Source of the DNA: Heterotrichella gracilis
Lineage: Eukaryota > Sar > Xanthophyceae > Tribonematales > Xanthonemataceae
DNA: 64,000 bases
NCBI GenBank assembly: GCA_032358255.1
Contig: JAULBX010017747.1
Coordinates: 186,001 to 250,000 of the forward strand
Direction: 5' to 3'
Position numbers and translations under genes: made by a program. The number at the start of each line of letters is the position of its first letter. The stretch's first letter is position 1. A model generated the notes under the pieces. The model saw only the letters and a program-made list of their open reading frames with translations. It did no database searches and was not told where the DNA came from. Shown here in pieces: positions 12-50,200 of the stretch.

Positions 12-3000
12 ATGGAAGACATAGAAGGAAACGCTGCGGTTGCAACAAGCAGCTCAGCTGAGGAGGGACCCAGTGAAAGCTCAAAAGTGCAGTTTAAAAC
101 GGAGGTTATCAGGTATGCAACCTGCCTCTGCTTTTCGCCTTTGTACAGAATCTTGCCCGGGTAGGTTTTGCCATATGCATGCATATGAATATGGGGCAGG
201 GCTCGCCAAGGCATGTCTGGAAGCTTCCGACGTGGCCTTCTGTTCTCTGGGGTTGTAGTGCCAACAGCTGTAATGGGTTGCAGGTATTTCCAGTACCTGA
301 CCTCCAAGCACATGTCCCCAGACAACGCGGCTGTGTGGGCAATGCGCATCGCCTCAGGAACAGGTAGGGTGGTGGTGCACTCCCTTCCCTGTCAAAACCA
401 TACTGGCTTGGCTGTACTGTATTGCACGGTAGAGGAGCTCTTGTGCGGGCGCCTGAGATGGGTTTGGTAGGGGTCGTGTGTGATGCGCATGCCTGAGGTA
501 GGGTTTTGTGTGGTTGTGCAGTTCCACCCCCACTCGACCTCCCCGCCTTCTTGTCTGGCTTGGACGCCCAAGGTGGAAACGAAACGGCTGCCATTGTGGC
601 GAAGCTGCTAACCACTGAGTGCTCAGTGGCCTTTACTTTCGCCAAGGACTTGAGCACTGTGTGCCACGAGGCAAGTGGGGCGCCAGGCGTGGGGCATGTG
701 CGTGCGTCTTGCCTGCACATGCCTAGGGTTTAGGGTTCAGTTTGCAGCTGCTGTGTCTTGCCTGCACATGCCTAGGGTTTAGGGTTCAGTTTGCAGCTGC
801 TGTGTCTTTCGATTCGTGGCGCCCATCTGCACCCACTTGTAACTCGCAAGGCGCTTGCGCACCGCCTAGAACCGCTGGTTCTGCTGCACCATCACCCACT
901 GTACTCGCTGCCGCCTGTGCAACCCTGGGTGCTTGACATGCAACAGCTTCGCCACGTGCACTTGCGGCATCCTTCAAATTTCCAGATGAAACCAAAAGCC
1001 AACGAACCTCCTTGCCAAGACAGTGGGTGCTGCACTTGTTGCAGACTGAAGCAGGGGATGCGCCAGAGGGTGCGCCCACCTGCTCTGGGAGCCAGGCAGT
1101 GGAGGCACTGGATTTCGCGGCAGTGGACGCCTTTTACAGCAAGCTGGTGGCTCTGGACGTGAGGTAGGGCCGCCCCTGCACCGGTCCGCATACAGTGGGT
1201 TGCTGTAATGCCTGCACCCTTGCACCTGGCAGCGCCCCTGCGCTGTGTGCCACAGACTGACTACCCATTAGGATGCGCCACGTGACCATGGGTTGCACTT
1301 CCATTGCTGGTGACGGTGGTGGTTGTGGTGGTGGTGGTTATGGTCCACCAAACCCATGCACCTTCGTTCCTGCATGCCATTCCACCCTCCACGCGGCCAC
1401 CGCCCACATTCCATTCCCATCCCCCACCACGCGATCCCACCCCACCCATCGCTCCAGCCACACCCACCCACTCACCCGCTGCCAAACCCCCACCCTGCAG
1501 CGCGGTGACCAACGCCCTAGTGTCGGGGTGCACACGGCTGGCGGGGGCCATCCTTGCGCGCGCCGCCTCCTGGTCCCGCCACCCCCAGCGCCTGGTGTGG
1601 CTTGTGGTGGTGCTGCTGCAGAACCCGCTGCTGGAGGAGCCGGAGCACTTCAGGTGGGGGCGAAACCCTAAACCCTAAGCCCTTGGCAAAACCCTAAACA
1701 ATAGCACTTTTCAGGTGGTGACGCAACTCAGCAGAACCGCTTACTAGAGGACTCACAGAGTTTCAGCAGTGGTTGGACATGACAGTGTGCATGCCACCCG
1801 TGATCCACCTCACATGCATAGGGGTCCCACTTGGTCGTTGGGTTGCAACGCATCACCCCGCATCCATTACACACCGCATCGCACTCACCCCATCCCCCCC
1901 CTCGCCGCAGCCTGTTGAGTGCCGTGGCTGACCCCCTGTCCAAGGTGGCCTCCTCCTCCTCCTACGAGGGGGCCCGCCAGCTGCTGCAGTCCGCCTTTGG
2001 CGCCTACCACCCAGACTGCTTCAGGGCCCTGCTGTCCAAGCTGCAGCAATTCATCACAATACAGGTGAGGGTGCCTGCCCAGGGGTGTGCTGGGGGTACC
2101 CCGCCCAGGGTGGGATTTGAACACCCTGCCTTTGGTGCGCCTTTGGGCTTGGTGAAACTGACACACTTTGAGGTACATTTACATCCCATGTATCAATTGC
2201 CCTCCGCACTCTCTCTCTTGGCATGCTCGATACTCAGCACATCCCAATATAGCCTCCATTCTATCCCACACAGCCCCACAACACAACCCCTCCAATGCCT
2301 TCCAAACCCTGTGCAGGTGTGCCATCACGCCAACCCCTACACGCGGGACACGCAGCACATTCTGCCGCTCATGAAGCTGCTGGAGTCTGCAAACGACGCA
2401 GCGCACCTGCTGCCCTACCCCGCCTTCTACAACGACGCGCTCAACCACGATGAGTTCAGCAAGCAGATGGACTACGAGAGGTGGGTCGGTTGATAACATG
2501 CAGTGCCCTCCTCTCCGCCACAATCCTGAAAGAAGCTTGAATTGTCACTACTCCACAATTCTGAAAGAAGCTTAAAATGTCAGAATATTGTGAAGGCAAA
2601 GTACGCAAATAGCCAGTGTGGGAGCCTTTATGATCACCATAGGTAGCATTTAAGCAAGGCGGATTAGCAGTCCGCATGCGCATCACAGCAGGTTGCAGCT
2701 CTTGGCTCATTGGCAGAAATTACGCATGCGTCGATATACTCGTTGGCCTACTGTATGAACCCTAAACACCCTAATCCAGGTATCCACCCCCCCTCCAGGC
2801 ACAGGTAACGGCGTGGTCAGTTCTCTTGCTGCCAGTACCCCTTTGTGTACGCTGCCTTTCCACCTATCACCCCCATCACCCCTCACCACCACCCTGCAGG
2901 TATGCGCGCGGCCAGTTCTCCTTCTGCCAGTACCCCTTTGTGTACGACACCGCCTCCAAGGCCGACGTGCTGCGCATGGACAACCAGGCGCAGCAGATGA

Positions 3001-6000
3001 GCGAGTTCTCCGAGGCAATGTACAACAGCCTGTTCAACCCAGCGGGGCCGCAGTGCCCCTACCTCATCCTTAAGGTGAGGAATGCGGTTGGTTTGTTTGT
3101 GGTTTTTTGTGTGCATGTGTAGTTTTGGGGAGGGAGGAATGTGCAACTGCATGTGTAGCCCAAGGGGACTGCAGCGCCCATAGCTCATCTGTAGGCTATT
3201 ATGGTGTGAGATTGGGGGGAGAGGCACCTTGAATATGTGAGGGGGTGGGGTGTTGTGTGAAGGGTGCAGGTATCGTATGTGGTGGTGGGGAGAGGGGCCC
3301 AATGTCATCATTGGGTGAACCCCCAGTATTTAACTCCAGCTGTACTCCCGTTCCCCTTCTGGGGCCCTTTAACCCTCCGACCCATCCTACATGCCCCACC
3401 ACTCCTGCCCATTGATCCTACCCTCCCTCCCTGTCCCTCCCTCCCTCCCTCCCTGTCCTTCCCATCCCCATTCACCCTCATCCCTCCACTCCCCCAGGTG
3501 CGGCGCGGCGAGTTCCTAGTGAACGACACCCTCATCCAGATTTCGCGCTTCAGCGGGAACAACATGCTGCGCAAGCCACTCAGGGTGCAGTTTGTCGGGG
3601 AGGAGGGGGTGGACGAGGGGGGCGTGCAGAAGGTGCGCAATCCCATCCCAATCGCAAGCACATGTACAAGCGGAAGCCCAAGTGATAGCAATCACAAATA
3701 AAGATTGTGTTCTAAATCAATGTTCAATTGTAGTTGCTCATGACTCGGAACCATTTGTTGATCTTGTGGGCACGAAAATGATAATAAAAATCCAAAAAAA
3801 CAAACAAAATTTAAACCCTTCACTTCTTTCCCGCAGGAGTTCTTCCAGCTGCTGGTCCGGTCCCTCTTCGACCCCAACTACGGCATGTTTGGCTACGACA
3901 GCGAGACGCACCTCAACTGGTTCCGCGCCTCCTCCATCGACCTCACCCAGGAGTTTGAGCTGGTGGGCATCATGCTGGGCCTGGCCATCTACAACAACCA
4001 CATCCTGGAGCTCAACTTCCCGCTGGTGACGTTCAAGAAGCTGCTGGGGGAGGAGGACACGCTGGAGGACCTGCAGGTGGGGGGGGAAACCCTAGGGCAC
4101 TGACCAAAACCCTAAATATGTTTTATGTAAGAACTGCTGGGGGAGGAGGACACGCTGGAGGACCTGCAGGTTGGGGGGCAGACCCTAGCGCACTGACCAA
4201 AACCCTAGCATTTGGCCCAAACCCTAACTTGGTTTCTGCAAGAAGCTGCTGGAAGAGGAGGACTTGCTGCAGGACCTGCATGTGAGGAGAATAACCTGCT
4301 CCGCGGGGAGCGAGGAGGGGCGTGGCGTCCCGAGTTCCCCTCGGATCACCAGCACTGGGGATACAAATCGGCACTTTTCATCCCGGGGATGAGCTACATG
4401 GGGACGCTATAAATTTAGAAACCGTCAATCGCGGTTCTTTTTAGCCTATCCCTATGCCGTAGCCTTTCGGACTAGCGGCCGCCGGTACCCGCCGCCCGCT
4501 CGCCTTGACCCAACGTGGTTGCTGCTGCAGGACGTGAAGCCCGAGGTGTACCGCAAACCCTAATCGCATACCCTTATCGCATGTCTGAACCCTTTGCCGC
4601 GCCTGCCCGCCAATTGCATTGACCCCACGTGGTTGCTGCTGCAGGACGTGAAGCCCGAGGTGTACCGCAGCCTGCACAAGCTGCTGGAGAGTGAGGAGGA
4701 TGTGTCAGAGTGGGGGCTCACATTCCAGGTGGGGAGGGGTTTGGGGGGGGGGGGGGTTAATTGGCATGTGGTCGTGGGTGTGAAAGCAAGGGTGCGGTAA
4801 TGATGAAATTGTTAGAAGCATGTAGAGGGTGGCTCTTCCCTTTTGTAGGTCGAGCAGGAGTCGGATTTCAATGGCCAACCAAGAGGGTCGACCTGATCCC
4901 CGAATAAACAGCAATACTAGACCCTAAAGGGTTTCTCCTTGCTGATGTAGGTTGAGCAGGAGTCGGATTTTGGCGAGGCCACCGAGAAGGTGGACCTGGT
5001 CCCCAATGGCGGCCAGGTGGCGGTGACGAGTGACAACCGTGCGGAGTTTGTTCGCCTGTACGTGCACCACATGCTGGACGACTCCATTGCCCGCCAGTTC
5101 AAGCCATTCCAACAGGTGAGGGATGGTGGTAGTGGAGGTGGTTGTGGTGGAAATGAGGGCTGGGTGGCCCTTCAGATTGATAAAAAACCTAAGATCATGG
5201 TCATGATAGGAATGATGTGATTGTGGGTGGTAGGTGTGAAGTTTGACTTCGTTTGATTTTCAATTTTTTGATGCGAATGTGGTTGGTAGGTGGGTGGCAG
5301 TATGGATGCGCAGCCAGGGTGGTAGAGCCTCTGAGAGAAGGGTTGGGATTGCACATTTCTATGCCCCTTCACACACATACACAACTACAACCACCGCACC
5401 CGCACCCGCACCACACCCGCACTCGCACCTACACCCGCACCGCGCAATCCCATTCCTCTCCGAGCCCTAAGCGCAACCCAAACCCTTGCGCAGGGTTTCC
5501 GCAGGCTGTGCAGCACCCGCAGCATGCGCATGCTGCGCGCCGAGGAGCTTGAGCGCCTGGTGTGCGGCAGCAGCCAGCTGGATTTCAAGGCGCTGGAGGA
5601 AAACACGAGATACGAGGACGGATATACCAGGGCATCACAGGTGAGGGCCTAAACCTGCAAATTCCTCATAATTTCCCACTGTTTATTTGTGCAGGCGGTT
5701 AGATGGGAATGTACGGCCATATGCTTTTGTATAGGGTTTTGGGGCGAAGAGTTTAACTCAACGTCCCTGAGGTGGACTCAGTGAAATTGTTTGTTCTCTC
5801 ACAACCCTGAGCACACCTTCTGTGGTCCTAACGGTGGGAGAGGCAAATCCCTAAACCCTAAACCCCCACAACCCCACCCCCCACCCCACCCGCAGGTCAT
5901 CCGCTGGTTCTGGCACGTGGTCCACGCATTTGAGGACGACGAGAAGAAGCGCCTGCTGGCCTTCGTGACAGGCTGCGACAGGGTGCCCATCCGCGGCTTG

Positions 6001-6174: not shown

Positions 6175-7640
6175 GATGAGATGAGATGGGAGGGGGCCCC
6201 ATGCGGTGGGGCAAAAGGGGAGGTTTTGGGGGGCCACTGCGGGGGAGGGCTTGGCCTGTAGCAGCTTGCAGGGCTTTGGGCTGCGGTGAGAGGAAGGGGG
6301 CATGGGGCTGCGAGGTGCCGGTGGACTGGATGCTGCGAGGGACAACTGCGCAAGGTTTTGGCCTGCTGTGCTCCTGCAATAGGGCTTGTACTAGTAGGCT
6401 ACGCAGTGGAAGGCACAGCCCGCACCCCGCCTGGCGCCATGGCGCAACCCTGCTGGGGAGGGAAACCGGAGCACACATGGCTGGGTAATACTGTGTACTC
6501 GAGGCTGTAAAACCCTATACCCTGGGAGGTGGACACAAATCATTAATCTGCCCCTGGGCCAGGCAGTCGTCCTGGTGTCTCGGCAACTACGCCAGTGCGC
6601 GACGCAATGTGCTGCTCGCACCGCACCACAGGTTTCACCTCAAACTTGCCAAGTGTGGATGATCAACACCCAGTAACAATTTACTTCACACGAGTCATCA
6701 AAGTTGCACCTCTGAGGCTCAGGCTGGATCAGATTCTAGTACTTTATGGTTTTTAATTATTATATACTATATATGGTTCGAATCCACGTACCTTTGCCCC
6801 CCCCCGCGTGCCCAAAATCCACGTTCCTTTGCTTCCCAGTCCCCACCTATTCAGCTGGGATTGCGTCATGCATGCACACTTTAGGGAGCATTACAACTGA
6901 TCAGTCGACGTCGACGTGATGGCACCTAGCTGCTTGGCATTCAGTGCATTGAGCAACTACAGCCAGCTGAGGCGTTAGCCAAGCGCTCCTTTTCAAGGTG
7001 AGGCCCGTGAGTGTGGGGCAGATACCTGGAGATGCCTATCCAATTCCCTGATTACCTTAAGCAAGAGGCCCCCTGGGGCTGGTGCCTACCTAAGCATATT
7101 CTATTTGCAACTCTACTTTGAAACCCAACCTGCACCAACAGGCAACCACAAATTGCCAGGTTTTGCCTGCTATGGCCTGCATGCAGTGGCCGGGAGCCTC
7201 CGGGAAAAGCGACGCCCTCAATGCATAGCTATCAAAACGGGCTACAGTAGCTGTAACTGTTGCAAGTCCATTGCCGCTTCACACCATCTGCAGGGCACCA
7301 TGACATCATCTGCTGCTGGTCAATGGTATGCTGCATTGGAATGGGGAGGGTCCCCATCCCAGCTGTGCCATGTTAAAAAAACATCATCCACAACTCCACG
7401 ACATTTCCCGTGAGAAAACTGCCACTATTTCCCCCATCACCCATCATGATCGTAGCTCATGCCCGATGCCCAGCCTTCACTTCTGCGCATGCTGCCAGCG
7501 GCTGCCAGAACCCCTGTACTACAGCACCTTGGGCAAGCTCACAGCAAGGTGCTAGCCAGCAGCCTCCAATGCAGTAGTACTACACAGCAGAAGGCCCCAG
7601 GCGCTCTCTTGCCAGCTGTCCTGTGGGGTGACCTGTGCGC
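6175..7640. other. Convergent intergenic region, HECT / CBS gene
   Basis: Holds the 3' ends of two convergent genes. I see no coding exon here. The plus strand at 6891-6895 reads TTACA, a TGTAA signal for the minus-strand CBS gene. A short GATGA-rich repeat follows the HECT stop at 6174-6188. Confidence 0.5.
6506..6510 (+). terminator. Candidate TGTAA polyadenylation signal of HECT gene
   Basis: TGTAA is the usual green-algal polyadenylation pentamer. This one lies 332 bases after the HECT stop, just before the sequence shared with the convergent CBS gene. Position only; no cleavage data. Confidence 0.4.
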
Positions 7641-14077: not shown

Positions 14078-17000
14078 TTATACAGTCAGGTACTCCCGTA
14101 GCACCTGCCGTGCCAATTCATTGGCCCCACTGGCGCGGTAAATCAGGGCCAAATTGTGCGCCGCCTCCCTCTGCACATCCACCCCCGGCGTGCATCCTGC
14201 ACCGTCCCCGGGAGGTGCCAGCGCAAGGGCTTTTTCATAACAGGGCACCGCGATGTGCACAATCCCCAGCTGGTGCGCGGCCCTGCCCATGTTGTAGGCT
14301 GCCTCCTGGGGATTGGCCCGGGCCCGGGAGTACTCCTGGAGGAATGTGAAGCCCTGGAGGATGGCTTTGTCTCTGTCAGGGACCTTCCTGGTGATGGCCT
14401 GCAGGGTAGGGTAATATGTAGTTGGTAATCCACTCACCACTCTTGAAGAGATCGTCTACATGAGGGTATGTACATACCCTCACTTTTGCTGCAATCCTAA
14501 CCTGGCTTGGGGTGAACCTTGGCACCTACCCTACACCAGGGTTAGTCATTGAAATTCTACCAACCCCTTTAACATGCTCGCCTCACCTTGCTGAGCGGCC
14601 TCGACTGACCGCGATGCACAGGGCCCCGCCACAGCATGCGCCCCTGACCGGTATAAAACGACACCAAGGGAGTTGCCCACCCTCTCAGTACCCTCACCTG
14701 ATGGAGCAGGGTGACCGCAGTGCACAGCATCTGCAGCAGGCTGCGTGGCCCTTATCCCAACCCAGAACTCTATTCCAAACTGGATCTTTGGCCCCCCATT
14801 GCCCCCTCACCTGGTTGAGCAGCGTGACTGCAATGCACAGCATCCGCAGCAGGCCGTGTGCCCCTACCCCGCCTCAATACCTCTAATTTAAACCTTAATT
14901 ATACGCCCCCCTTCACCTGGTTGAGCAGCGTGACTGCAATGCACAGCATCAGCAGCGGGCTGTGCGGCCCCGCCACCAGCGCGTGCATGTACTCGGACAT
15001 GCCGTCGCCGTGCTGGCCCTGCAGGCACATGCAGTGGCCCAGCAGCAGCATGAGGGGCACGCTGGATGGGTGCTTGGTGCGCAGCGGGTGCAGGAACTTC
15101 ATGTTGTGGCGGCCCTGGCCGATGGCGGCTATCAGCCTGCAGGGAAGGGGGTTTAGGGTTTAGGGTTTGGGGCCCTGGCCGATGACGGCTATCGGCCTGC
15201 AGGGAGAGGGTGGGGTGGGGTGTATGACACAGGGGGTTGGAGTGAGGTCAGTATGGACGATACTTTTAAATCGCCCAAACCACATAATTTAAGACAATTT
15301 GTTGACGAATTCATAGACGGTATGAATACGGTGGGGATGTGATTGCCTGGAGGATGTCACCTCAGGTTTCATGTGGCAAGTTTGCTTGCATCACAGACAC
15401 TCCTACAATATCTACAATACAAGGGGTTTTCCAAACGGTCTAGGTTTTTCCTTACTTGCAGTAGAGGTTCCACACCACGTTTGAATGTGGCCAGTGCTGG
15501 CACACCGTGCGCATGTGGGAGAGGGCAGCTGAGTAATCGCCTCGATGGTAGGCCACCTCCGCCAGCACCAGCCTGATTGACTCGCGCTTGTTCTTGTCAA
15601 CCCAGCGCCTGTAAGTGGGGAAGGACAATCCTCTTCCGGTAAACACTTTGGCCCAAAGTTTGGGATGATACGAAGCAGTGAGTGTCCACATCCTCGGCAC
15701 CTCACTAGGTCACCCAAGCAAAACATCAGTACTCCAATATGTGAAACCTTGTTGAGGGTAATGCTACCATCGTGCAAGGTGTAGGGTGCCCGTTAGGTAT
15801 CAGCTTTCAGGTTGCTGGACTGCATGTACGAAGAGTTCAGGAACCACTCTCGTGAGCAGCAGCTTGCGCCAAGCATGCAGGGCATCCTTACCCCAGCCTA
15901 GGGTTTAGGTTGGATGCACGTCACCTGGGACACACATGCAAGTGTAGCTGTAGGGTTTAAAGTTTGGGTAAGGTCCAGGACCTATTGAGGGTTTCTACTC
16001 ACGGGGGCATCATCTTGAGCACTGCTTCTAGGGTATCGGCAGCGGCTGGCAGCTGCCCTAGGGCGCACAGCTGGCGACCCATCCTCAACAGGAGGCCAAA
16101 CTGCACGCTGTCGCGCATCAGATCCGGGAGGAATAGTGGGGCAGGAGCTTCCTCTTCACCTGCAAAACAAGGGGAGTTTAGGGGCACTCAATACATCTGA
16201 ACAGATGATTGGCCAAATTTACCAAGAATGGCAGCAACTTGCAAGGATTCCAAGATTCATTTGACAGTCACAAGTTGTGCAACCAAAATGAATGACTGGC
16301 CAGCAAGATTTATAGCTTTTGCACAAACGGTTAAACTTGCTGGTAGACGTTGCCATTCTGAGGATGGCAACACAGTGCGCGGATACTGTGCCGCCATATC
16401 CGTACAGTAAGTTTGTGCAATACGCACCATGACATATGCAACCCACCCTGGTATGGCACATGCACACCGCCAGCAAGGGTCTCCAAACCTGCCCCACCAC
16501 CCACCTTCGCCCTCAGCACCCGTCACAGCCGCCGCCGCCTCATCAGCAGCAATCACATGCGCTTTCCGCCTATCCCTTTTTTGCCATCCCTGGAACAAGG
16601 GCTGGTCCCCACCCTGGTCCCGACCATCCCCACCGCCCCCTGGTTTCAGCAGCCGCTGCCGCTGCCTTGCCAGGTGGCGTTGTACCGCGGATGCAACCAG
16701 GGGGTCCAGGCCACTTGGCAGGTTTTGGTTCTGCTCGTAGTGGCGGATGGTGTTGATGACCAGGGGGAACATTATGTCCAGGAAGCTGTTCTGCAGGGGA
16801 GGGAACCAGAAGACGTGTTTAAGGTTTAGGGAGGGGGGAACGGTGGCCGAGGCTGAGTTAATCTATCCGGCGTGGTTACGGTATTGGTGAAGGGAATGAG
16901 GGGTCACGGTTTGAATGAAAGCGACTGGTTTATGGTAAGATGTGTGGCAACGCAGCTGCACCAGGCACACATTGGAGACCTCCCCTCAAACTCTACTCAT

Positions 17001-20000
17001 AACCCTGCCCATCTCCCCGCACCCTCCTTACTCCCCCCCAAAATAACCTAACCCTAGACCCTAAACCTCAAACCCCTGTACCTGCTGCTCCAGCTTGTCA
17101 TGCAGCGTGGCCTTCCTCAGCAGCAGCTGAAGCAGCGCGCTGGGGTCAGGCGTGGGGGTTTCGCCTGCTGACGTGGCGGCGTCCAACTGGTCCAACAGCT
17201 GCGCTGCCTCCGCTGCCTGACCCGTGTCAGCATACAGCTCGGCCAACCCCAGGATGGCCTCAGCAGTTGCACCCATGCTGCCGCTCTCTGTGGAGGCACA
17301 TGTCGGGTTTAGGGTTTAAGGGCCTAGGGTCTAGGGTTCAGAGGTTGCCCCCATGCTGCCGCTCTCTGTGAGGCACCCGGATGTGTCAGGCTTAGGGTTT
17401 TGGGTGTAGGGGATAGGGTTTAGGGATACCCCTTACATGTATCCAAGGACTCGTGAGCAGTAACAGCAGGTGGTGAGCTTTGGAGCAGCGTGGAAATGGC
17501 TGGCTGATAACCTTGCAATCCAAGGTATAACCCAGGCTGCCTGACTCCGCCAAACTACCACAAATATTATTTGTATGATTCCAAGCATTTACCACAATAC
17601 TAGGCCCCTTACCCGCCAGCACTGCCTCGAACGCCCCAATTGCCCCCTGCAGGTCCCCCAGCTGGCGCATGCATGCAGACACCTTGTCAAGGACTCCTGG
17701 GTCAGTAGCCAGCACAGGATGCTCCAGGATCTGCACCCGCAAACCACAGCAGCCGGTCAGGATCTCAGCATGGGGCAGGTAGGAGGGGTCATAGCCTTGA
17801 ACGTAGCTGCACATGCAACCCTCCTTCAACATATCAAGGCGGGGAGAATTGCACCACCAATGCCTAGCTATACCATGGCCGTGATGTGCGGCATGTGGTC
17901 CCCTTGGTGATGCGCCCCCCGCCGCACCCACCCCTCTCACATCACCCCCCTCACCCCCCTCCTCCTCACCACCCACCCCCCACCTTTCTGTAGGACACCA
18001 CCGCCTGGTGGGGCTGCACCATGGCCACCCCACCCCACCCCACCCCATCCCCCACCTTTTGGTACAATACCACCCCACCACCACCCCACCCACCCCACTC
18101 TTCACCTTTCTGTAGAACACCACTGCTTGGTGGGGTTGCCCCATGGCCACCAGCTCCCCAGCTGCATCCATGTACAGGTCGCCATAGGCGTCCACGGGCT
18201 CAAGCAGGAGCGGCTGGAGGGACTCAACTGCCTGCTGCACAGACCCCAGGCGGGCAAAGCAGAAGGCGGACTTGACCTGCGGGGAGGGTTTGGTAGGGTT
18301 TTGGTGGGGCTTTGGTAGGGTTTTGGGAGGTGTGGGGTCTCCTGCCGGATCAAGTGGATTCCTCAGAGCGAGTCGCTTCATACACAGCGGGGGCCACCCT
18401 AAACCCTAAATGCTCTGCACCCCTCTCTCGCCCAGGCAGCACCTTCCAACCCCTCTCAGGGTTCTCCTGAAGTCCTCCCCGACTGCACCTCCCAGCACTT
18501 GCAGGGTGTGCCTAGGGTACTCCTCGCCCCCTGTAAGGGTCTTGCCTAGGGTTGCAATCCCATCCCCACCCCCCTACCTGCAGGTCGATGGGTAGCGCCT
18601 CCCCCCCACCCACCACCCCCCGGGTGCGCTGCATGAGGTCCAGGGTGTCCTGGTACCTTTCCCCCTCCATGTACAGCTCAGCGAGGATGTTCACATGCGT
18701 GAGGTCGGTGGCGTCGGGGAAGGCCTGCACACAGGGTTTTGTAGGGGTTGTTATTTGTATGATACCATGCGTGAGGTTGGTGGTGTCGGGAAGGGCTGCG
18801 CACAGGGGTTTTGTAGGGTTTGGGGGGGGGCGGTGGGGGGGCTTCCTGTATGTTCAGGAGTGCGTTGGTAGGATGTTCACATGCGTGAGGAAGGTGGCGT
18901 CGGGGAAGGCCTGCGCACGAGAACCGTGGTAAAACCCACTGCCAAAATGTGCGTCGCCTTGAGATACGGCAGCACGCATCCAAACGTGGATGCTGGAAGC
19001 GGTACCAGATGCAACACGAGGAGCAACATGTCGTGTCCTAGTGGTTGTAGCATTGCAAAATTCTGAAGGATAAAACTGCACCCTTGCAAGCATGAGCGTT
19101 TTCAAATAAAACCCATTAAATCACGTGAAAAGGAAGGGGGTTTCATAGTTGTAGCGCGCTGCTCACATTCAGGTGCTGCTCCAGCGCTGCCATTGCGCGT
19201 GCCGGTTGGTTCATTCGGTGGTACAGGCGGGCAAGCATCTTGGGGATCTCGCCATCGCCGGGCCGGGATTGGCCAAGGGTCTCAAAGCCATCCACTGCCT
19301 GCAGAGGGGGAGTATGGCACATGACGCAAAGCAGGAGTGTTATTATAAACGGTAATAATCTCGCAATAAACCCTCAACCCTAAACTCAAGTGCACCTCCC
19401 CCACCCCAGCAAACTCCACCTCTCCCACCTTCCAGTCTTCCCCAATATCCACATACAGCACCGCCCAATGCAAGTTCTCAACCCTAAAGCCCTAACCACC
19501 TTCACTTTCCCCAACCCCCCAAAGCCCCACCTTCCTGACTTCCCCAATCTCGGCATACAGCACCGCCCTGTCCCAGCGCGCATCCAAATCCCCGGGATCC
19601 AGCCGCATGACCCGGCCCAGGCAGTGAATTGCCTGGCGCAGGAATCCAAGTTGGGTGGACTTGGTGGACACGCGCTTCCACAGGGACACATCCTGCAGAA
19701 ACAGTACTAGGTTTATAGTGCATGGGAACAAGGAGATAAAAGCAGCCGCAGTGAATATGATAAATGTGATGATAAATAGAAAGGATGTGTCATATTACTA
19801 TATACTTCATGGCAATTGCAAGTACGAGGTAGACATGCACCACAGGTAAAATTTGATTGGTTTTTATGCAGATGCCAACATCACACAGTCCCTTCTCGTT
19901 CCCCTCCACCCCCCACCCCCCACCCCCGCACGTTTGTGTGCAGGTGCGCCGCAATCATGAAGAAGTCCAGTGCCCTGCGCTGGTCCCCCAGCCCCTCGTA

Positions 20001-21975
20001 CAGTAGACCCAGGGTGTGGTAGGGGTCGGCAAGGTTGGGGTAGCCGCGGATGACCTCGGTGCACAGGGAGATGGCGTCCTGGTGCCTAAAAGGGGGGCAG
20101 GGTGAGGGGTGGGGTGGGGGGTGGGAGTGGAAGAGCGAAGGGGATGATACATGTCAGGTTGTGGTGACGATGTTATGGATCGTGGGAGGACAGGCAGCGG
20201 GGGCAAGGTGGGGCATGGTCGGGGGATTGCCAAAAGGGGAAAAGATAATGGGTATCACCAGCATGATGCGTATGCGCATGAGCTATGCTGTAACACAGGC
20301 GCCGCAAAATTCAACCATCAATTTGCTTTTGCATCGCGGGGGCGCTGACTCACCTGCCCGTGGCATACATGAGGTTTGCGTCCCCCAGCATGTTCTTCAC
20401 GTCTTCCGGCATCTCCTTGCTACGCACGCCCCGGGCGGCAGCCTTGCGCCTGAGGGGCAGCACAGGGGTCACCACATGTTTGATGCAGCAATGCAGCAGC
20501 TGGGAGTTACATGCATGCGGAGCTATAGCCGGATTGGCAGTCATGTGCGCATAGCAATTCTTAATGTCTTTGGGCGTCTCCTTGCTGCGTGCACCATGGG
20601 CGGCTAGGGGTGGGTCAGTGACGACTGATGGTGCAGGAAGCAGCTGATAGTTCAGTTACATGCATCCAGCAGTGCAGCCACATTCTGCTGAATAGACAGC
20701 TCTGCCATGCATGTTGCCCTTTGCAAGGTGTACTGCAAGGCTTGGGGTGGGGTCGGCTCATATTTCTCACCTGTATCTGGCACGCTGAGTCCGTTTCTTG
20801 CTTGTCCTGTGGTTGTGATCTGTCAGCCCCAGGTCTCCTGCAATCCCCGCAAGGCTGGGGTCGTTCCTGAGCAAGGCAGAAAGGCAACTCGGTAAAAGCA
20901 AAACCCTAGTGAAGGGTTTGGGAGACACTTTTAAAGAGGTTACCCTGTTGACAGTTCTAACGAACCATGACGCAATTGCGGTATTTGATGGACGATTAGT
21001 TGCTGGCTCCATCGTTCTTGCCCATGTGTGGCCAATTGTGTGTACACCCTAAACCCTATATGCATGCATATGCACCAGATGCATGCATGCACCGCAGCAG
21101 CTGCCCAAACACCTCCGCGCATCAATTTGATACCACAAGCAACACCCTTGTCATGTCTGGAGCATGGCAGCGAGGCACTACTGTGTGCATGCCCACGTCG
21201 CGACGTACAGTTGCAGCGGTTGGTCGTCGCCGCTGGAGGCTTCGCTCTCGGGCTCGTAGTCCCCCCCAGAGCTGGAAGCTGCAGCAGCCTGCAGTATACA
21301 GCGACACCGACACACTTCCTCTTTAAATGGGTATACCCGGTTAGGACGTCAACGTCTGAAATCCCCGGCAAAAATTCAAACATCGAACTATGCATGCCGT
21401 GGTGCCCAAAGCCAGGCACCAACAGAGGGGTTTTGCTAGACAACACCCAGCGTTGTTAGGAACCAACTACGCACCTCGTCGTCGTCGCCGCTCCTTCGTC
21501 TCTGCTGCAGGTGCGCGTGCTTCGCAGTGGCAAGAACCTGCACACCACGGGTCCATGTGTCACATTCCATTCCTTGTGGGTGCAAGATGCACACCGACCG
21601 CAACCAACAATCCCACGAAACCACGCCCACAGAACCAAACCAATAGCCTCTACTGCATACGCTTCAACTGAGCAAACGCGCAAGGGCAGCGACTCTCATA
21701 TATCACACCTGGTACGGCTGCATGCCACCCGTTTCCTCTGCCATGCTCTCCAGCGTGGCAAAAGCCTCTGCCTCGTTCCCAAACAGCTCATCATCATCCT
21801 CCCCTTCATCCTCGTCAGCCGTGGTGTACGCGCCAGCGTCGAACCCGCCACCTCTCCCCTGCTGCCATTGGTCGTCCCTGTCCCCGCCATCGTCGCTGCC
21901 ACCCCCCCGAGCTGACTCCTCCTCTTCAGAGGAGTCAGCCTCTTCATTTTCCCACGCTAGATCGGGGCCATCCAT
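14078..21975 (-). CDS. GTF3C3: TFIIIC TPR subunit (GTF3C3 / yeast Tfc4 homologue)
   Basis: Subunit of TFIIIC, which binds internal promoters of tRNA genes and recruits TFIIIB for RNA polymerase III. Seventeen exons, in gene order: 21975-21709, 21504-21475, 21288-21209, 20866-20771, 20449-20354, 20085-19932, 19692-19531, 19298-19167, 18724-18578, 18276-18106, 17730-17613, 17287-17082, 16790-16505, 16159-16003, 15608-15456, 15136-14917, 14398-14078. They sum to 931 residues in frame (human GTF3C3 is 886). Residues 1-130 are acidic; a Lys/Arg patch (HRTSKKRTQRARYRRK) precedes the TPR array from about 165. The end (AAYNMGRAAHQLGIVHIAV ... AHNLALIYRASG) matches the family C terminus closely. The second exon has only 30 bases. 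Introns hold many duplicated exon edges. The start at MDGPDLAW is chosen because the acidic region begins there; an upstream in-frame Met exists. Confidence 0.9.
14583..14875 (-). repeat. Two clear and one weak copy of GTF3C3 exon 16 end
   Basis: The donor-side end of exon 15136-14917 (plus-strand CACCTGGTTGAGCAGCGTGA) recurs at about 14697-14755 and 14811-14870, with a weaker copy at 14583-14640. Each includes the CACCT donor. Spacing is 100-115 bases. All lie within the last intron, so the intron contains a ladder of potential alternative 5' splice sites. Confidence 0.88.
15165..15207 (-). repeat. Copy of GTF3C3 exon 16 start
   Basis: GGCCCTGGCCGATGACGGCT at about 15171 repeats GGCCCTGGCCGATGGCGGCT at the true exon start (15111-15136), with the acceptor GCCTGCAGG retained. 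The two copies are joined by TTTAGGGTTTAGGGTTTGGGG. Confidence 0.92.
17341..17395 (-). repeat. Copy of GTF3C3 exon 12 start
   Basis: CCCATGCTGCCGCTCTCTGT at about 17349 repeats the acceptor edge of the exon at 17287. The copies are separated by and followed by GGGTTTAGGGTTT-like bases. Confidence 0.9.
17983..18070 (-). repeat. Copies of GTF3C3 exon 10 end
   Basis: CCACCTTTCTGTAGGACACC at 17983-18030 repeats the donor edge of exon 18276-18106 (CACCTTTCTGTAGAACACC). A second, worn copy follows around 18050-18070. Confidence 0.82.
18765..18915 (-). repeat. Two copies of GTF3C3 exon 9 start
   Basis: The exon 9 acceptor edge (plus strand GCGTCGGGGAAGGCCTGC at 18711-18728) recurs at about 18767-18800 and 18865-18912, with ATGCGTGAGG and GGTTTTGTAGGG shared around it. 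The farthest copy keeps a good acceptor. Confidence 0.88.
19420..19478 (-). repeat. Copy of GTF3C3 exon 7 end
   Basis: CTTCCCCAATATCCACATAC with CAGCACCGCCCAATGC at 19437-19473 parallels CTTCCCCAATCTCGGCATAC with CAGCACCGCCCTGTCC in the exon. Both are flanked by CAACCCTAAA/CCCTAA bases and a CCCACCTT donor. Confidence 0.85.
20530..20602 (-). repeat. Decayed copy of GTF3C3 exon 5
   Basis: CTCCTTGCTGCGTGCACC at 20577 and the bases before it (ATTCTTAATGTCTTTGGGCG) mirror CTCCTTGCTACGCACGCC and GTTCTTCACGTCTTCCGGCA in exon 20449-20354. Confidence 0.8.
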
Positions 21976-25900: not shown

Positions 25901-28275
25901 TCAGACAGCCTGGTGTCACTGCTGGTGCTGCTGGGCAAGGGGGTGGTGCACAAGCTTGGGCAACACAGGTGAGATGGCGCATGTTGTTTCCAGTAACGTC
26001 ACCCAGTTAGTTATTTTAGGTGATTGGTTGGGTGCATGTATTAAATATATCAGGAAATCGACCATGCCAGTCGTCTGTTCTACGTGCCAGCTGCTGGTGT
26101 GCTGCCCATGTGCTGCTCATAGAGTGGCACACCAGTTGTCGCCAACTGTGGTTATCTGCACTTTGAAATTATTTCTGTGATTTTGGTCGTGGCATTGTGA
26201 GGATGAGTAGAGTGTTGATGTGACCAAGTAGCATAAAATCAGCATCATACATTCAACGTGGGCTCTAGGAGCCGCCAGTAGCCCTAAACCCTGAACCCTG
26301 AGACCTTAACCCTTGCATCCCAAGGTGGAACCAGGAGCAACCTGAACCCCCAAAACCCTTTTGCAGGGCAAGGAGCTACCAGCGCCTGTCCTCCCCTCCC
26401 CTGTCCCCAACACCCCCCACCGCCATCCACGACAGCTACAAGGGTTGCGAGATACCCAGGACTTGGTGGCTGGCTGGCCTGGCCCTGTCCACCCTGCTGT
26501 GCAGCGCCATCCTGTCCCCTATGTTCCACATGCCGCTGTACCAGCCCCTGGTGGCGGTGGGGCTGGCGCTGCTGGTGGCGGTGGTGGCGGTGCGGGCGCT
26601 GGGCCAGACGGATTTGAACCCAGTGAGCGGGGTGGGAAAGGTGTCACAGGTGGGTAGGGAGAAAAACCCTTGTTTAGGGCTTAGGGTTCAGGGTTGGCAG
26701 TAGTGATGTATGTGCGTTGGGCCAGGCGCATTTGAACCCAGTGAGCGGGGTGGGCAAGGTGTCCCAGGTGGGTGAATAATGACAAATAATCTTTGAAGAG
26801 CTCTGTGCTTTGGTGTCACTGATAGGTTGTGGGGAGGTACTTCTTGACCATGGATTGACAGCGACACCCTGAAGCGTATATTAATTGGGTTGCTTCTTGT
26901 GCCTCAGGGAGTTGCTGCCTCCCCAGTCCATCATTCATACCCCTTGATAACGTCACCAGGATGGGCACCTAATGATCATGCTGACCAGTATCTTGTGGCA
27001 ATTCCTGCAGATAATTTTTGCGGTTGTTGCTCCCGGGAAGGTGGTCCCCAACCTGGTTGCGGGGGCCATTGCTGAGGCGGGAGCGCAGCAGGCAGGGGAC
27101 ATGATGCAGGTGGGAAAGGAAGGGAGAGGGGAAAGATAACCAAACGAATTTATTGATTTCCCAGAATGTTGGTCCCAAAAAATGCCAGTGATTTTTAGTT
27201 GGTTGTGGTATTCACCATTATGATATGCAGCACTGGGTGCTCAGCATGCACACCAAGCTAGAAAAAAGCTGCTGACATGCGTTTCCAGCGGCAATGTGGG
27301 GTCGTTTCTGGACGGATTTTGTTGACTCCTGCATTGTTGCATACAAATGTCATGTGCATCCCAGCACATGTATCTGTACAGCCTCTCAAAATTCAGGATT
27401 CCCGGACATTCACCTCCTGCCCTCACCTCCAGGATTTCAAAACAGCGCACCTGCTGGGCGTCTGCCCACGCTCCCAGTTCCAAGCCATGGCCCTGGGATC
27501 AGGCGCATCCGTGGTCATCTCAGTCCTGGCATACAAGCTCTACACCTCCGCCTGGGAGGTGCCTGGGCCAGAGTTCCCCGCCCCCACCGCAGGCATCTGG
27601 CTAGATATGGCCCGGCTTGTGAACGGGGGCCACCTGCCGCCGCATGTGGGGCCCTTTTGCGTGGTCGCTGCATGCGTGGCGGCGACGGTGCCCCTGGCTG
27701 GCGCGCTCCTAGATGCGCAGGTGGCGGCGGCGACGGCAGGTGTGGTGGCAGTGAATATCTTTACCTGTTTTAATATTATTTATACACTTTTTCCCAGTTC
27801 CCAGAAAATCGGCTCGTTGAATATCCCTTGCCCTAAATGTGTGTATACTGTAGCCCCGACACTCAAAGGGCTTAAGGCCGGAAGTCTAATTTCATTGGCT
27901 TCTAGGTGCGGGGTTTAGCACGAGCCGTTTGCATGCGCTCAATCTGCCTGCCCACCCGTAAACCCTAAACCCTAATTTGGAAATCCTTGCGCAGGTGTCA
28001 GCCGCGGCACCGCCAGCCGCCTGCGCCTCCAGTGGCTGACCCTGGTGCAGCGCTACCTCATCCCCTCCGGGGTGGGCGTGGCTGTGGGGCTGTACATCGC
28101 GCCCAAGTGGACCATCCCCCGGGTGGTTGGGTGTGTGATCGATCTGGTGTGGGCGCGTGTGGACAGGGATGGTCACCGGGGGCTGATGCTGGTGGTGGCT
28201 AGTGGCCTGGTGCTTGGGGAGGGAACAGCTTCGATTGTGCTGGCTCTGGTGAAGGCAGCGGTCAAGGGGCGCTAG
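22927..28275 (+). CDS. OPT-family oligopeptide / metal-chelate transporter
   Basis: Proton-coupled membrane transporter of small peptides or metal chelates. Exons 22927-23048, 23344-23594, 23940-24178, 24507-24732, 25033-25228, 25456-25553, 25785-25968, 26367-26649, 27011-27109, 27433-27739, 27995-28275 sum to 761 residues (797 from the ATG at 22819). Family marks: LLCFSNMYFGLQTGW in the first helix pair; LRFPSGTATAHVI; ELTLSLGYVGQGMIMGP; GWAPGDIWDWETGATGWILW; and GLYIAPKWTIPR near the end. About 14 hydrophobic segments are expected. The loop around exon 4 is long, polar and variable. The overall type is closer to the fungal/bacterial OPT branch than to classic YSL proteins, but substrate cannot be read from sequence. 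The last part of exon 8 is duplicated in the next intron. Confidence 0.9.
26718..26775 (+). repeat. Copy of OPT exon 8 end
   Basis: GCATTTGAACCCAGTGAGCG and the following GGGTGGGCAAGGTGTCCCAG repeat the end of exon 8 (26598-26649) with few changes and keep the CAG/GTGGGTGA donor. The copies are separated by CTTAGGGTTCAGGGTT. Confidence 0.92.
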
Positions 28276-30668: not shown

Positions 30669-31498
30669 ATGGCGGAGGGCGAAGGTGCTGCGCAGCCGCA
30701 ATACCTGTGGTTGCAAAAGCCAGGCAGTAAACCCAAGAAGTGTGCTTATCACAAAAAGTGGAAGTTGTACATGAAGAGCTTTGGGTTGCATGCCCGTTCC
30801 ATCAGACTTAACGACACTCCCGGCTTGGTGGATGAGGAGTTCTGGACCAAGCTGCCAGGTGACGAACTCAAAGAGAAGCTTGGCGCAGAGGGGAGCAGGC
30901 GCCACCCAGTGGTGGTCACAGGGGTGCCGCTGCCACAGCCAGGTACTTCCCATGTGGTGTCACTGCTGGTGCCTAGCGTGTTGCAGGCAGGGAGCCTCTT
31001 TTGGTCCTGCCTCCGTGTTGCTTGTCATGTGGAACAGGGTGGGTGGTTGCTGGAGCACTGTGCATGTGCGCCCATACAAGCGACAGACAGCTTATTGCCT
31101 AGTCAAGTGCTCAACAGGAGAGTGTTCTGCCACTTGGTGCCGGTGCTCACATAAAGTGCAAGCCATTCCGAGGCGTGTACCGCCCCCTTTGGCCCCCATG
31201 GCACATACCTAGCTTGGAGCATTTTGGTCTTTCACTGGTGTCCTTTGGTTCCCTTCTACTTGCAGCACTATCCCCCTACACACTTGCTGAGCTGGAGGTG
31301 GCCTGCAAGGTCGATGAGTTTGATGACTTCATTGCCGAGGCGCCGACTGCCAGATGGTTCTCCGGGTGGTGGTGGCCACACGTCTTGGACTGGCGATTGG
31401 TCACACTAGTTGTGGTGCTGGCCCTTTTTCATTTCAACATCTTGGAATTCCACAACCCTATGATCTCTTTTGGTCGTGGGCTTTGCGCTCAGCCTTGA
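30669..31498 (+). CDS. Unknown protein, tandem copy B, one membrane span
   Basis: Exons 30669-30942 and 31266-31498 give 168 residues, paralogous to copy A (LNDTPGLVDEEFWTKLP, VTGVPLPQPG, WFSGWWWPHVLDWR, then LALFHFNILEFHNPM). Both frames are intact, which argues that both are functional. A second splice form is possible: donor after 31472 (TTTTG/gtcgtg), acceptor before 31565, third exon 31565-31668. This stays in frame and gives 194 residues with a Lys/Ala/Gly-rich basic tail ending GPRKRAR. Copy A shows no such tail. Function unknown. Confidence 0.7.
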
Positions 31499-31668
31499 AT
31501 CCCTTCCGCTTTGGCCTTGCCTCTTGCCCTTACCCTCAGCTTCTGTCCATTCTGGTTGTGGCAGCACAGGCCAACGTGGTTGGGACCAACGAGGGCAAGG
31601 GCAAGGCCAAGGCCAAAGCAGAAGGGGCCAAGGCTGAGGGCAAGGGCCCCAGAAAGAGAGCCAGATAA

Positions 31669-47266: not shown

Positions 47267-50200
47267 TCACGCCACCACCGCCTTTGGGATGCTGAACTCC
47301 CCCTCCCGCATCACCAGCGCCGCAAACGCAAACCCCGTGGCCGCACCCGCCACGTGCGCCGCGATGTCCAGCTGCTTCCCCGCCTTGTGCGACACATACT
47401 CGTACAGCAGCTGCGCCCCCAGCAACCCTAGGGCATTGAGCTCCAGCCCAAACAGCCACACATACTTGCGGTAGGGCAGCAGCACCGCATTGCAGGCGAG
47501 CAGCGCATACACGATCGACACCCCGCCGTTCCATTCCCAGAGCACCCTCCCGCGCGCGCCGTTGAGCGCCAGGGCGGTGAGCGATGACACCACTGCTGCT
47601 GCTGCGTAGAGGGCCATGAAGGGCCAGAAGCCAAGCTGCGTCTGCAGCGAGGGGCCCACCAGCAGCAGCATCTGCATGAACCCTGTGGAGCGCCAACAGA
47701 AGGAAACGAGGCCATGATTGACTAGGCGCATCACCTCAAGCACAGGACATTGTTTGGAGCAAGAGCCAGATTTAGGGCATGGGTGAGGCAAGAGTCAAAG
47801 TGAAAGAGGGCCAGTCCTTAATGGATGCTGGTCAATTGTCCACATAACCCTATAACAATAGTTTAAGGCTGTTGTGCTTGGATCTCTGAGGTCCCAGTGC
47901 CTTGTGCGGCTTTTTTGTCCCCCACACAAGACCTGTCTCACAATGCACTTGCCTTGACCTGGTCTAAGTACATTTCCTAGCCTATGAGGGATACCAGGTC
48001 TTCATGCGATGGCTGTTTAGGGTATAAGGTGCACGGTTAGGGTTTAGGTTTCAATTTCCTACCTATGAGTGACACCAGGTCCTCGTGTGAGAGCGGTGCC
48101 AGCAAGATGGTCCAGGGGCGCTGGTGCGCCGAGAATCGCGACAAGCGCCAGTGGTTCACCATGATGCGGGTGGGCAGCACATGCCACGCCAGGCAGATGA
48201 GGGCGTTGACCGTCACTATCACCTGTGCACGGCACAATTTGGCAGATCAAATTGAGGTCAGATCAGAGTAGGTCAGCTATTATTGTCATGCATAAAGCAG
48301 TACAATAATACTAACAAATTGTATTATCAGTAGAGTATAGCAGTGTCAGTGGGTGGCTGCGGGCAAAGTGTGCCTTTATGCAGAATCCCCCCTCAATCTA
48401 CCATGGTTGTGGTAGACCTAATGGGGCAGATTCAACCTACCAAACCCACCAAAAGGCTTTAAATGCAGATCGGGCAGCATCACACACACCTGCATAAACT
48501 ACATTATAATCATCTGCACGCACCCACCACCCTTCACCCCGGTACCACATGGCTGTCCTCCGCCCCCCTCCCCCTCCCCCTCCCTTCTTGTTCCTATCCC
48601 CACACACGCACCTCCAGCGGCGTCAGCACCCCCTGCGGCCCATCCGCCATGACCGCCCCCGCCTTGCGCCCCGCAGCGTGCAGGTGGTGCGCCAGCCAGT
48701 TGACCGGCAGCGGCATCCAGCACCCGAAGCAGCCCAGGAACCAGGTGTGGTTGTACAGCAGAAGGCTTGCCAGGTGCAGGTTCCAGCAGGAGGCACCGTA
48801 GCCTGCCTGGTGCCTCAGCCACAGCCACGTGCTAGTGGCGGCACCTGCGGGTGGGTGGACCCCAGAGATCAGCAAGTTTGACCCGCATTGGATTTCGAAA
48901 ACGTGCAGAGGTATGGTGGTGCACTGTATGTGGCATGGGAAACTTGAGCACACCCGTACCACAACAACCAATACGTATGCCAATGTCATTGACCAAGGGG
49001 CATGGGCTACAACACAAAACCAAGCAAACCCAACATGGTAATACAATGCGCGTCACTTGTTCAATGTATGCATGATGCATATGCTCCGCTCATGCGTGCC
49101 CTGAAAGCCCCACCACACCCAGACAGTGGAAATCCCCTCCAACCAATTGTGCTCTACTGAAGTCCTTACCTGGCAAGAAGCCGTAGCCATCCCGCACATA
49201 GTCCTTGAGGAATGCGTAGAAGTGGTCCACACCGGGGTTGGTGCCATAGGCCACCGCCACCACCGCCACAGTGGCAGCTGCGCGCGTCCATGTCAGCAGC
49301 GGCCGCCGCTCAATGCGCCCCTCGGGGGTGATGAAGGTGCGGGTCTGGGGGAGAGGGTGGAAGGGTTGGACTAGCAGGGGTGTGGTGCATGTGCGTGTCT
49401 CAGGGTATGAACATGCGGGTATGGTGCACAAGGGGTTGATGAATGTGCGAGTCTGGGAGAGCGCGCGGGGTTGGACCAGCAGGGTGGTGGTGCATATGTG
49501 TCTTCGGCAGTGCTCCCAATTGGGAGCTGTGCGTAAGACAAGTGTATGATGACCTTATGAGTTCCACTGAATCACTGCAAAGGTGCAGACCAGGGAGCGT
49601 ATTCCCATGCAGCAATGAAAGACTGCACTCACCCATGGCGACGCCTGCCCGCCCCACCATCCCCTCCCCTCCCCTGCCGCCCGCGCATACTGCGGTGCCC
49701 GCTGCTCCGCCTGAGGCGCATGTGTGAATGGCGGCAATCGGCTGACCACATGCACGTGCACCAGCCCCGCAAGGATGCCGCACAGGTGGCCCAGGAAGGA
49801 TGCGTTGGGCACCATGACTTGGATGAGCACAAGCTCAGCCCAGCAGACATACTGCAAGGGGGGTGGGGGCGTGAATGGGCGTGTGAATGGGCATGGGCAC
49901 CATCTCGCATGTGGGTATTGCGCCATGCAACAAATGGTCACAGTTTGCCAGAGTGTGGTGCGGGCATGAGGGAGCATGGATGGGGATCGACCAGCTGACC
50001 CGAATTGAGCATTTTTGGAGGCTATGTGCGCTATCTTTGTCAGGCACTCCTCGGGATATGCGCCCTCGGTCGCAGGGGTCAACGTGAACTGGCAAAGCTG
50101 TATTATGTGCAGCGAACGTCAATTCCAGGGCATTAAGCACCTTGTCATACCGCCCCATGTGATCATCCCATATCACCATCCCATGGCACCAAGCACCTCA

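What the first reader, a model, noticed from the sequence alone, without database searches (positions are those of the whole stretch)
707..49492. Exon echoes: introns carry decayed copies of neighbouring exon edges with splice sites
In HECT (2806, 4125, 4503, 4846), GTF3C3 (14583-14870, 15165, 17341, 17983, 18765, 19420, 20530), OPT (26718) and rhomboid (49433), an intron holds one to three extra copies of the first or last 25-60 bases of an adjacent exon, always with the acceptor or donor. Copies range from almost exact to worn, so the process seems continuing. Many are joined by CCCTAAA/TTTAGGG bases. I know of no described class of intron growth that matches this: it would lengthen introns in exon-edge units and seed decoy splice sites. 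The seeing is direct; the single-process idea is inference.
Basis: partly seen in the sequence, partly recalled or inferred. Interest (0 to 1): 0.8.

Follow-up and report, generated by a model that had tools for sequence, protein, structure and literature searches.

The report
Telomere-stitched duplications at intron ends
In this alga-like genome about one intron in eight carries a worn extra copy of the neighbouring exon's edge and splice site, often stitched in with bits of telomere sequence, as if broken DNA beside splice sites had been patched by making a short duplication.

Summary
In 223 kb of nuclear sequence, 41 of 336 modelled introns hold an echo of their own exon edge (44 echoes; about 0.1 expected; reverse complement 0), and 37 of 44 cross the splice site. 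Hits fade into the exon: 44/654, 10/477, 1/319 per 50-nt step.

The unit is a short local duplication, D-filler-D, straddling a splice site. Fillers hold telomere-type words in 22 of 43 cases, against 7.9±2.4 in matched echo-free intron. Conversely, 30 of 160 intronic telomere tracts are flanked by direct repeats, against 3.3% at motif-free points. Telomere words cluster within about 60 nt of both intron ends, and near donors genome-wide.

Best explanation: staggered breaks near intron ends, filled in to give duplications, with telomeric filler added before joining. Both ingredients are published; their joint, splice-site-focused occurrence looks new. Why events sit at intron ends, and whether telomerase made the filler, is not shown; filler orientation does not fit the simplest telomerase model.

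The parts
706..808 (+). exact tandem 49-mer holding TAGGGTTTAGGGTT, acceptor-like CAG and exon-start bases
   Evidence: Tandem Repeats Finder, 100% match; modelled intron 698-796
2802..2851 (+). acceptor echo of 2897-2946 (HECT)
   Evidence: 86% over 50 nt; crosses the acceptor by 3 nt
4077..4128 (+). donor bases plus filler with AAACCCTA words between the exon end and its first echo
   Evidence: sequence read; tandem unit 4035-4207
4129..4171 (+). first donor echo of exon end 4035-4076
   Evidence: 95% with flanks
4239..4287 (+). second donor echo of the same exon end
   Evidence: 86%
4490..4555 (+). acceptor echo of 4600-4669
   Evidence: 90% over 70 nt; 96% over the core; filler starts AACCCTAATCGC
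4823..4901 (+). acceptor echo of 4925-5004
   Evidence: 77%, 82% core
14691..14864 (-). two donor echoes (14691-14751, 14804-14864) of 14910-14970 in the GTF3C3-like gene
   Evidence: 83-84% and 90-91%
15171..15210 (-). acceptor echo of 15111-15149; filler 15150-15170 is CCCTAAA-type
   Evidence: 95%; not found in the masked scans
17338..17376 (-). acceptor echo of 17260-17299, telomeric filler
   Evidence: 90%, 89%
17956..18029 (-). donor echo of 18073-18151
   Evidence: 81%, 86% core
18766..18918 (-). two acceptor echoes (18766-18822, 18870-18918) of 18684-18750
   Evidence: 88% and 94%
19424..19466 (-). donor echo of 19526-19568
   Evidence: 88%
20558..20604 (-). weak acceptor-side echo of about 20393-20439; does not reach the splice site
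   Evidence: 77%
26714..26773 (+). donor echo of 26596-26655, filler with AAACCC and TTTAGGG
   Evidence: 92%
   Evidence: 84%, 86%
49432..49501 (-). acceptor-side echo of 49324-49396 (rhomboid-like gene)
   Evidence: 79%; 21 exon bases in the exon copy; below threshold

Best explanation
These are scars of DNA break repair. Two nicks on opposite strands, one a few to about 40 nt inside the intron and one about 30-70 nt inside the exon, open a staggered break. Both overhangs are filled in, so the segment between the nicks (D: exon edge plus splice site) ends up on both sides. Before the ends are joined, filler DNA is added, about half the time containing telomere-type words. The product is D-filler-D, adding a median of 115 bp. 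At a splice junction the new copy falls inside the intron, so the original splice site can still make the same mRNA and the change can be tolerated. SHOWN: D-filler-D geometry, telomeric enrichment of filler, flanking repeats around telomere tracts, clustering of telomere words at both intron ends. INFERRED: the staggered break, fill-in, end joining, and tolerance through splicing. GUESSED: that telomere-end machinery (telomerase, CST-Pol alpha) supplies filler and fill-in, and that G-rich exon-side 3' ends at intron borders draw it there.
For: Direct, not inverted: 106 against 3. Own-intron specificity and fall-off with distance into the exon. 37 of 44 cross the splice site. Fillers of 200 nt or less with a telomere word 22 of 43 against 7.9±2.4 position-matched, maximum 16 in 1000 draws. 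From the telomere side: 30 of 160 scorable tracts flanked by direct repeats at score >=30 against 0.07% shuffled, 0.6% inverted, 3.3% at motif-free intron points (48 of 208 tracts dropped beforehand as low complexity). Word density 1.98/kb in introns, 0.72 elsewhere, 0.21 in exons. Words pile up 10-50 nt from donors and acceptors. Genome-wide, CAGGTGNG followed by AACCCTA 1660 at 0-30 nt against 610 at 70-100, TAGGGTT 2233 against 736, reversed-pattern controls 16-18 each. Location: exon-edge+intron duplications 25 against 11.9 expected, both-intron 9 against 20.7. Contig starts carry (CCCTAAA)n and a TERT RNA-binding domain is encoded. Precedents: CST-Pol alpha fill-in of 3' overhangs gives small tandem duplications (PMC8355091: abstract, introduction and discussion read); telomeric insertions at breaks include target duplications in 4.5-16% (PMC2246262, PMC7215372: passages).
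Against: No empty site was seen: no relative of this genome is held. Filler orientation does not fit telomerase adding G-strand to both ends: G-strand reads on the D1 side 1 of 16, C-strand on the D2 side 8 of 16 (fillers of 15-150 nt); distances by orientation do not differ (p 0.41 and 0.68). Outward-G orientation is only mildly favoured (89 of 145, p 0.008; donors genome-wide 2233 of 3893), and at acceptors that could be selection against extra AG. About half of the fillers have no telomere word (21 of 44), and many have only one or two. Duplications wholly inside exons are NOT fewer than placement predicts (4 against 3.4), so purging of exonic events is not shown by that test, though at least one of the four (L015 8078) is an echo that the finder called an exon. 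STN1 was not found, but the control rang nowhere, so that is uninformative. The edge excess shrinks when a twofold longer lifetime of exon-anchored pairs is allowed (p 1.2e-5 becomes 0.014; for copies of 90% or more, 0.0007 becomes 0.021). G-rich stubs: no difference at acceptors (0.44 against 0.42, p 0.48).
Confidence: 0.6

Rival explanations
1. Ordinary random local tandem duplication plus retention: duplications arise anywhere, harmful ones are lost, and those at exon edges stay detectable longest because one copy is held by coding constraint. No hotspot is needed.
For: Anchoring is expected and could give up to about twofold; with twofold anchoring the edge excess is only p 0.014. Flanked tracts near intron ends 24 of 100 against 6 of 60 far from them is a ratio that anchoring could largely give. 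Pairs of an internal exon stretch with intron are as frequent as placement predicts (12 against 12.4).
Against: Telomere words are not anchored, yet cluster at intron ends, also in the 298 echo-free introns and genome-wide near donors. Both-intron duplications are fewer than placement predicts (9 against 20.7), while exon-internal ones are not (4 against 3.4), the reverse of what purging predicts.
Confidence: 0.2
2. Telomere-type words near splice sites are functional splicing signals kept by selection, and break there because telomeric tracts are fragile, producing the duplications as a by-product.
For: AAACCCT is the commonest intronic 7-mer and such words sit near both splice sites; interstitial telomeric repeats are reported prone to breakage (PMC11626172, seen only as a listing).
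Against: At donors both orientations are about equally common (40 and 43 within 80 nt), which does not suit a strand-read RNA signal. Only 101 of 336 introns carry the word.
Confidence: 0.1
3. Tandem-unit expansion: an intron-edge unit (D plus filler) expands by slippage or unequal exchange; telomeric bases are just part of the unit.
For: 15 of 41 echo sets have more than one copy, and 14 of 20 gaps between copies lie between 83 and 122 nt. Fillers within one array can be alike (L015 549-1016; L010 9537-9929 by reading).
Against: 26 of 41 echoes are single. Fillers of different introns share only short words (13-28 nt in the part of the list printed). It explains array growth, not the first duplication.
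Confidence: 0.06
4. Introner-like mobile element or intron birth by tandem duplication of AG|GT sequence.
For: Direct repeats near intron ends; a slight excess of exon-1-end against intron-end matches (7 against 2.2 at >=12 of 24); a HECT paralog on C771 (L002) appears to lack the intron at 4077-4644 (my reading).
Against: Only 8 intron pairs, 15 of 336 introns, share 40 nt or more (low complexity filtered). The matching test at the other end gives less than expected (1 against 3.5).
Confidence: 0.02
5. Assembly artefact.
For: No reads were available to check.
Against: Copies range from 70% to 96% identical with different fillers, and the donor-telomere pattern recurs thousands of times genome-wide.
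Confidence: 0.02

Closest known systems
Short interstitial telomeric sequences inserted at double-strand breaks (mammals; PMC2246262, PMC7215372; passages read)
   Same: Telomere-type repeats inside chromosomes, absent or rare in exons, sometimes with random filler and direct duplication of the target, attributed to staggered breaks.
   Different: There duplications are 4.5-16% of events and intronic location is as expected by chance (31% of human ones); here words cluster at intron ends and 30 of 160 scorable tracts still show flanking repeats. Repeats here are often degenerate (my reading).
Small tandem duplications from CST-guided Pol alpha-primase fill-in at breaks with 3' overhangs (PMC8355091)
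   Same: Direct duplications of tens of bases at staggered breaks; the same complex fills in telomere ends.
   Different: No telomeric filler and no splice-site focus in the sections read; dependence on CST cannot be tested here.
Filler-bearing tandem duplications in plants (rice natural insertions, paired-nick experiments; recalled, primary papers not read)
   Same: Tandem duplications and filler after staggered breaks in the green lineage.
   Different: Telomeric filler and exon-edge focus are not part of what I recall.
Introners (PMC9860276, search listing only)
   Same: Genome-wide remodelling of introns in some eukaryotes.
   Different: Introners are copies of one element that make new introns; here each intron copies its own exon edge.
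Direct repeats near splice sites (PMC11782384, abstract read)
   Same: Direct repeats near intron borders read as break-repair traces.
   Different: Those are 4-30 bp pairs around the two borders of one intron, read as insertion of the whole intron; here copies are mostly 35-130 nt and repeat one end of an existing intron.

Membership tests
Interstitial telomeric sequence inserted at a break | species telomere repeat at non-terminal sites | tested here: met
   (CCCTAAA)n at contig starts C70 and C140 and at inner places; its words enriched in introns
Interstitial telomeric sequence inserted at a break | break-site processing: duplication, deletion or filler | tested here: met
   30 of 160 tracts flanked by direct repeats against 3.3% at control points
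Interstitial telomeric sequence inserted at a break | empty orthologous site | not testable with these tools
   no relative of this genome is held
Interstitial telomeric sequence inserted at a break | repeat strand extending from the break end as telomerase would add it | tested here: inconclusive
   fillers do not fit; overall outward-G 89 of 145
CST-Pol alpha small tandem duplication | direct duplication of tens of bp with variable length | tested here: met
   exon part 10-90% range 29-69 nt, offset median 115
CST-Pol alpha small tandem duplication | dependence on CST, Pol alpha, end joining | not testable with these tools
   genetics needed; STN1 search uninformative
Introner | one sequence family shared by many introns | tested here: not met
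   8 pairs, 15 of 336 introns
Intron birth by tandem duplication (AG|GT) | exon-1 end matches intron end and intron start matches exon-2 start in register | tested here: not met
   at >=12 of 24: 7 against 2.2 expected and 1 against 3.5 expected, n=321 each; the small excess on the first side is noted

The most novel reading that the evidence does not exclude
Intron ends in this lineage are a genome-wide hotspot where breaks are handled as if they were telomeres: the exon-side end, G-rich at donors and at the complement of acceptors, receives telomeric repeats and telomere-style fill-in, which duplicates the exon edge with its splice site. This would be an ongoing, splice-site-focused mutational process that lengthens introns and multiplies splice sites, linking telomere biology to gene architecture.
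Probability: 0.3. Interest if true: 0.82.

Novelty: new variant of a known kind. Interest (0 to 1): 0.62.

Why it matters
How introns lengthen, and where extra splice sites come from, are mostly answered with transposons or random insertion. Here a repair-like scar with a recognisable signature (D, telomeric filler, D) is detectable in about one sampled intron in eight and sits at splice sites. If the location bias is mutational, splice junctions are break-prone, or differently repaired, in this lineage. In 34 scored echoes 28 keep the GT or AG, about what drift predicts (26.0), so it supplies raw material for alternative splice sites. It can be tested directly by resequencing or by repair mutants.

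Tried and rejected
In-register intron-birth test: a slight excess on one side only (7 against 2.2; 1 against 3.5), taken as no support. The donor-flank against acceptor-flank null in that same call was flawed (it kept both exons while swapping introns, and the finder had called some echoes as exons), so I use only the x and y tests from it.

Head-to-head telomerase model: filler orientation goes the other way and distances are uninformative.

Growth outward from the exon edge, youngest copy nearest: not supported, 7 against 8 in 15 echo sets (two of these rows are the same L015 intron seen from both sides).

Purging of exonic duplications: not shown by placement (4 against 3.4); only the low density of telomere words in exons (0.21 against 1.98/kb) points that way.

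Tandem repeats on C9 as empty sites: L027 holds scattered relics with 5S rRNA-like stretches (recognised from memory), not usable. HECT paralogs L002 and L004 are too diverged to serve as empty sites.

Genome-wide acceptor patterns (3254 sense, 2568 antisense, controls 16 and 29) are not used as evidence, because TGCAGG also occurs beside donors on the other strand and no distant-gap comparison was run.

First scans masked low complexity and missed 15165, whose filler is almost pure telomere repeat; one search repeats the exon-edge search unmasked. The placement test still rests on the masked scan, drops overlapping pairs and pairs longer than 200, and leaves 57 families. (splice dinucleotides) and 63 use the 41 echoes, not the 44.

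G-rich stub test at donors: outward tracts 0.43 G (n=15), inward 0.24 (n=24), none 0.33 (n=233), p 0.065 and 0.018; acceptors 0.44 against 0.42, p 0.48. Suggestive at most.

Literature: all 10 searches used. None of the titles and abstract starts listed was about telomere-filled duplications at exon edges; lists were cut at 8-20 rows and the library lacks most subscription journals.

Full report
WHERE WE ARE. The window is contig C178, 186001-250000, of a 68.5 Mb, 903-contig genome. Contig starts C70 and C140 carry (CCCTAAA)n, the plant-type telomere, and a TERT RNA-binding domain is encoded on C626 in two pieces. With the intron-rich genes this points to a green alga (inference; the species was not determined). 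Contigs C1 (33-36% GC in four samples) and C406 (28% GC) do not look like part of it: sampled frames are bacterial-like and crAss-like-phage-like. They were left out of the counts and served as a rough control.

MATERIAL. I sampled 18 stretches including the window, 223,098 bp in all, taken as nuclear, and trained a small hidden Markov gene finder on them. It gave 46 gene models, 514 exons and, after keeping exons of 45 nt or more and introns up to 1500 nt, 336 introns (median 288 nt). For the HECT gene its main exons agree with my own reading of the splice sites and translate into a full HECT domain (3e-98). It also mistakes some echoes for small exons and merges neighbouring genes, so counts are approximate.

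THE OBSERVATION. In the sample, direct local repeats outnumber inverted ones 106 to 3. The 50 nt of exon next to the intron match their own intron in 44 of 654 tests against about 0.1 expected, the next 50 nt in 10 of 477, and the next in 1 of 319; reverse complements give none (score >=30). The 44 echoes lie in 41 of 336 introns. 37 cross the splice site, with a median of 46 nt of exon and 14.5 nt of intron (the intron side is capped at 40 nt by the method). Identities run from 70% to 96% with a median of 87%.

WHAT IT IS. The cases read D-filler-D: the exon edge with its splice site, a filler (median 60 nt), and the same segment again. The added length has a median of 115 bp. The filler holds telomere-type words in 22 of 43 cases of 200 nt or less; segments at the same distance from splice sites in echo-free introns give 7.9±2.4 (maximum 16 of 1000 draws). 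Turned round, 30 of 160 scorable telomere tracts in introns have direct repeats on their two sides (score >=30); motif-free intron points give 3.3%, inverted repeats 0.6%, shuffled flanks 0.07%. So duplication and telomere tract often belong to one kind of event.

WHERE IT HAPPENS. Telomere words are about nine times rarer in exons (0.21/kb) than in introns (1.98/kb), with 0.72/kb elsewhere. Inside introns they peak 10-50 nt from the donor and 10-50 nt from the acceptor, also in the 298 echo-free introns. Near donors they are far above what positional base composition gives (40 against 1.9 and 38 against 0.6). Genome-wide, a donor-like CAGGTGNG is followed within 30 nt by AACCCTA 1660 times and by TAGGGTT 2233 times, and at 70-100 nt 610 and 736 times; the backwards patterns give 16-18 each time. 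Duplications that pair an exon edge with intron are 25 of 57 families against 11.9 expected from local random placement, while pairs wholly in introns are 9 against 20.7; internal exon with intron 12 against 12.4, wholly exonic 4 against 3.4, other mixtures 7 against 8.6. The wholly exonic number does not show the loss that purging would give, although at least one of the four is an echo called as exon (L015 8078). One bias favours the edge excess: exon-anchored pairs decay on one side only. Allowing a factor of two, the excess is p 0.014 overall and 0.021 for copies of 90% or more. The telomere clustering is free of that bias and is the stronger argument for a real focus on intron ends.

HOW IT MOST LIKELY WORKS. 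A staggered break, both overhangs filled in, filler added, ends joined. Published work shows that small tandem duplications form this way at 3' overhangs through CST and Pol alpha-primase, the complex that also fills in telomere ends (PMC8355091; abstract, introduction and discussion read), and that telomeric repeats enter mammalian genomes at breaks, sometimes with target duplications (PMC2246262, PMC7215372; passages read). The present case joins the two. The focus on intron ends could come from their base composition: G-rich at donors and C-rich at acceptors, so that the exon-side 3' end is G-rich on one strand in both cases, the kind of end telomere machinery prefers (recalled). This is a conjecture. 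The G-strand does run outward somewhat more often (89 of 145; 2233 of 3893 donors genome-wide), and donor stubs before outward tracts are somewhat G-richer (0.43 against 0.33, p 0.065), but acceptor stubs are not, and within fillers the order is not the one telomerase acting on both ends would give. Copying from telomeric DNA or RNA during end joining would fit as well.

WHAT IT DOES. It lengthens introns (echo introns median 380 nt, others 272) and leaves spare splice sites: 28 of 34 scored echoes keep GT or AG, 26.0 expected from their identity, so decoys are neither preserved nor removed visibly. In 15 of 41 echo sets there is more than one copy, 14 of 20 gaps between copies lying between 83 and 122 nt, probably by later tandem expansion.

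STANDING. Confirmed as a real, common, splice-site-centred feature; best read as a new variant of break-repair duplication with telomeric filler. Polarity by an empty site, ongoing activity and the enzymes involved are untested.

Noticed in passing
G000 contig C1 (L005, L022-L024), 894 kb, and C406 (L014), 45.7 kb: Low-GC contigs with bacterial-like genes (aldehyde dehydrogenase, PIF1/HRDC helicase) and, on C406, a crAss-like phage muzzle-protein match (1.5e-15): likely a companion bacterium and a phage in the assembly.
   Followed up: partly
window 4077-4644 and L002: A diverged HECT paralog on C771 appears to have continuous coding sequence where the window gene has the intron with two donor echoes and one acceptor echo; gain or loss of that intron is open (my reading).
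   Followed up: no
nuclear sample, introns: GCATGCA words are as over-represented in the sample as the telomere words (335 against 311 for AAACCCT) and frequent in introns on both strands (113 and 99); no explanation sought.
   Followed up: no
L027 (C9:126001-134000), about 1070-1200 and 7425-7555: Two 5S rRNA-like copies inside a larger repeat (recognised from memory; 90% repeat 780-1291/7152-7643).
   Followed up: no
window 28539-31463: Two long diverged local duplications (about 600-670 and 270 bp, 68% and 78%) spanning modelled coding exons, larger than and unlike the echoes.
   Followed up: no
   Followed up: no
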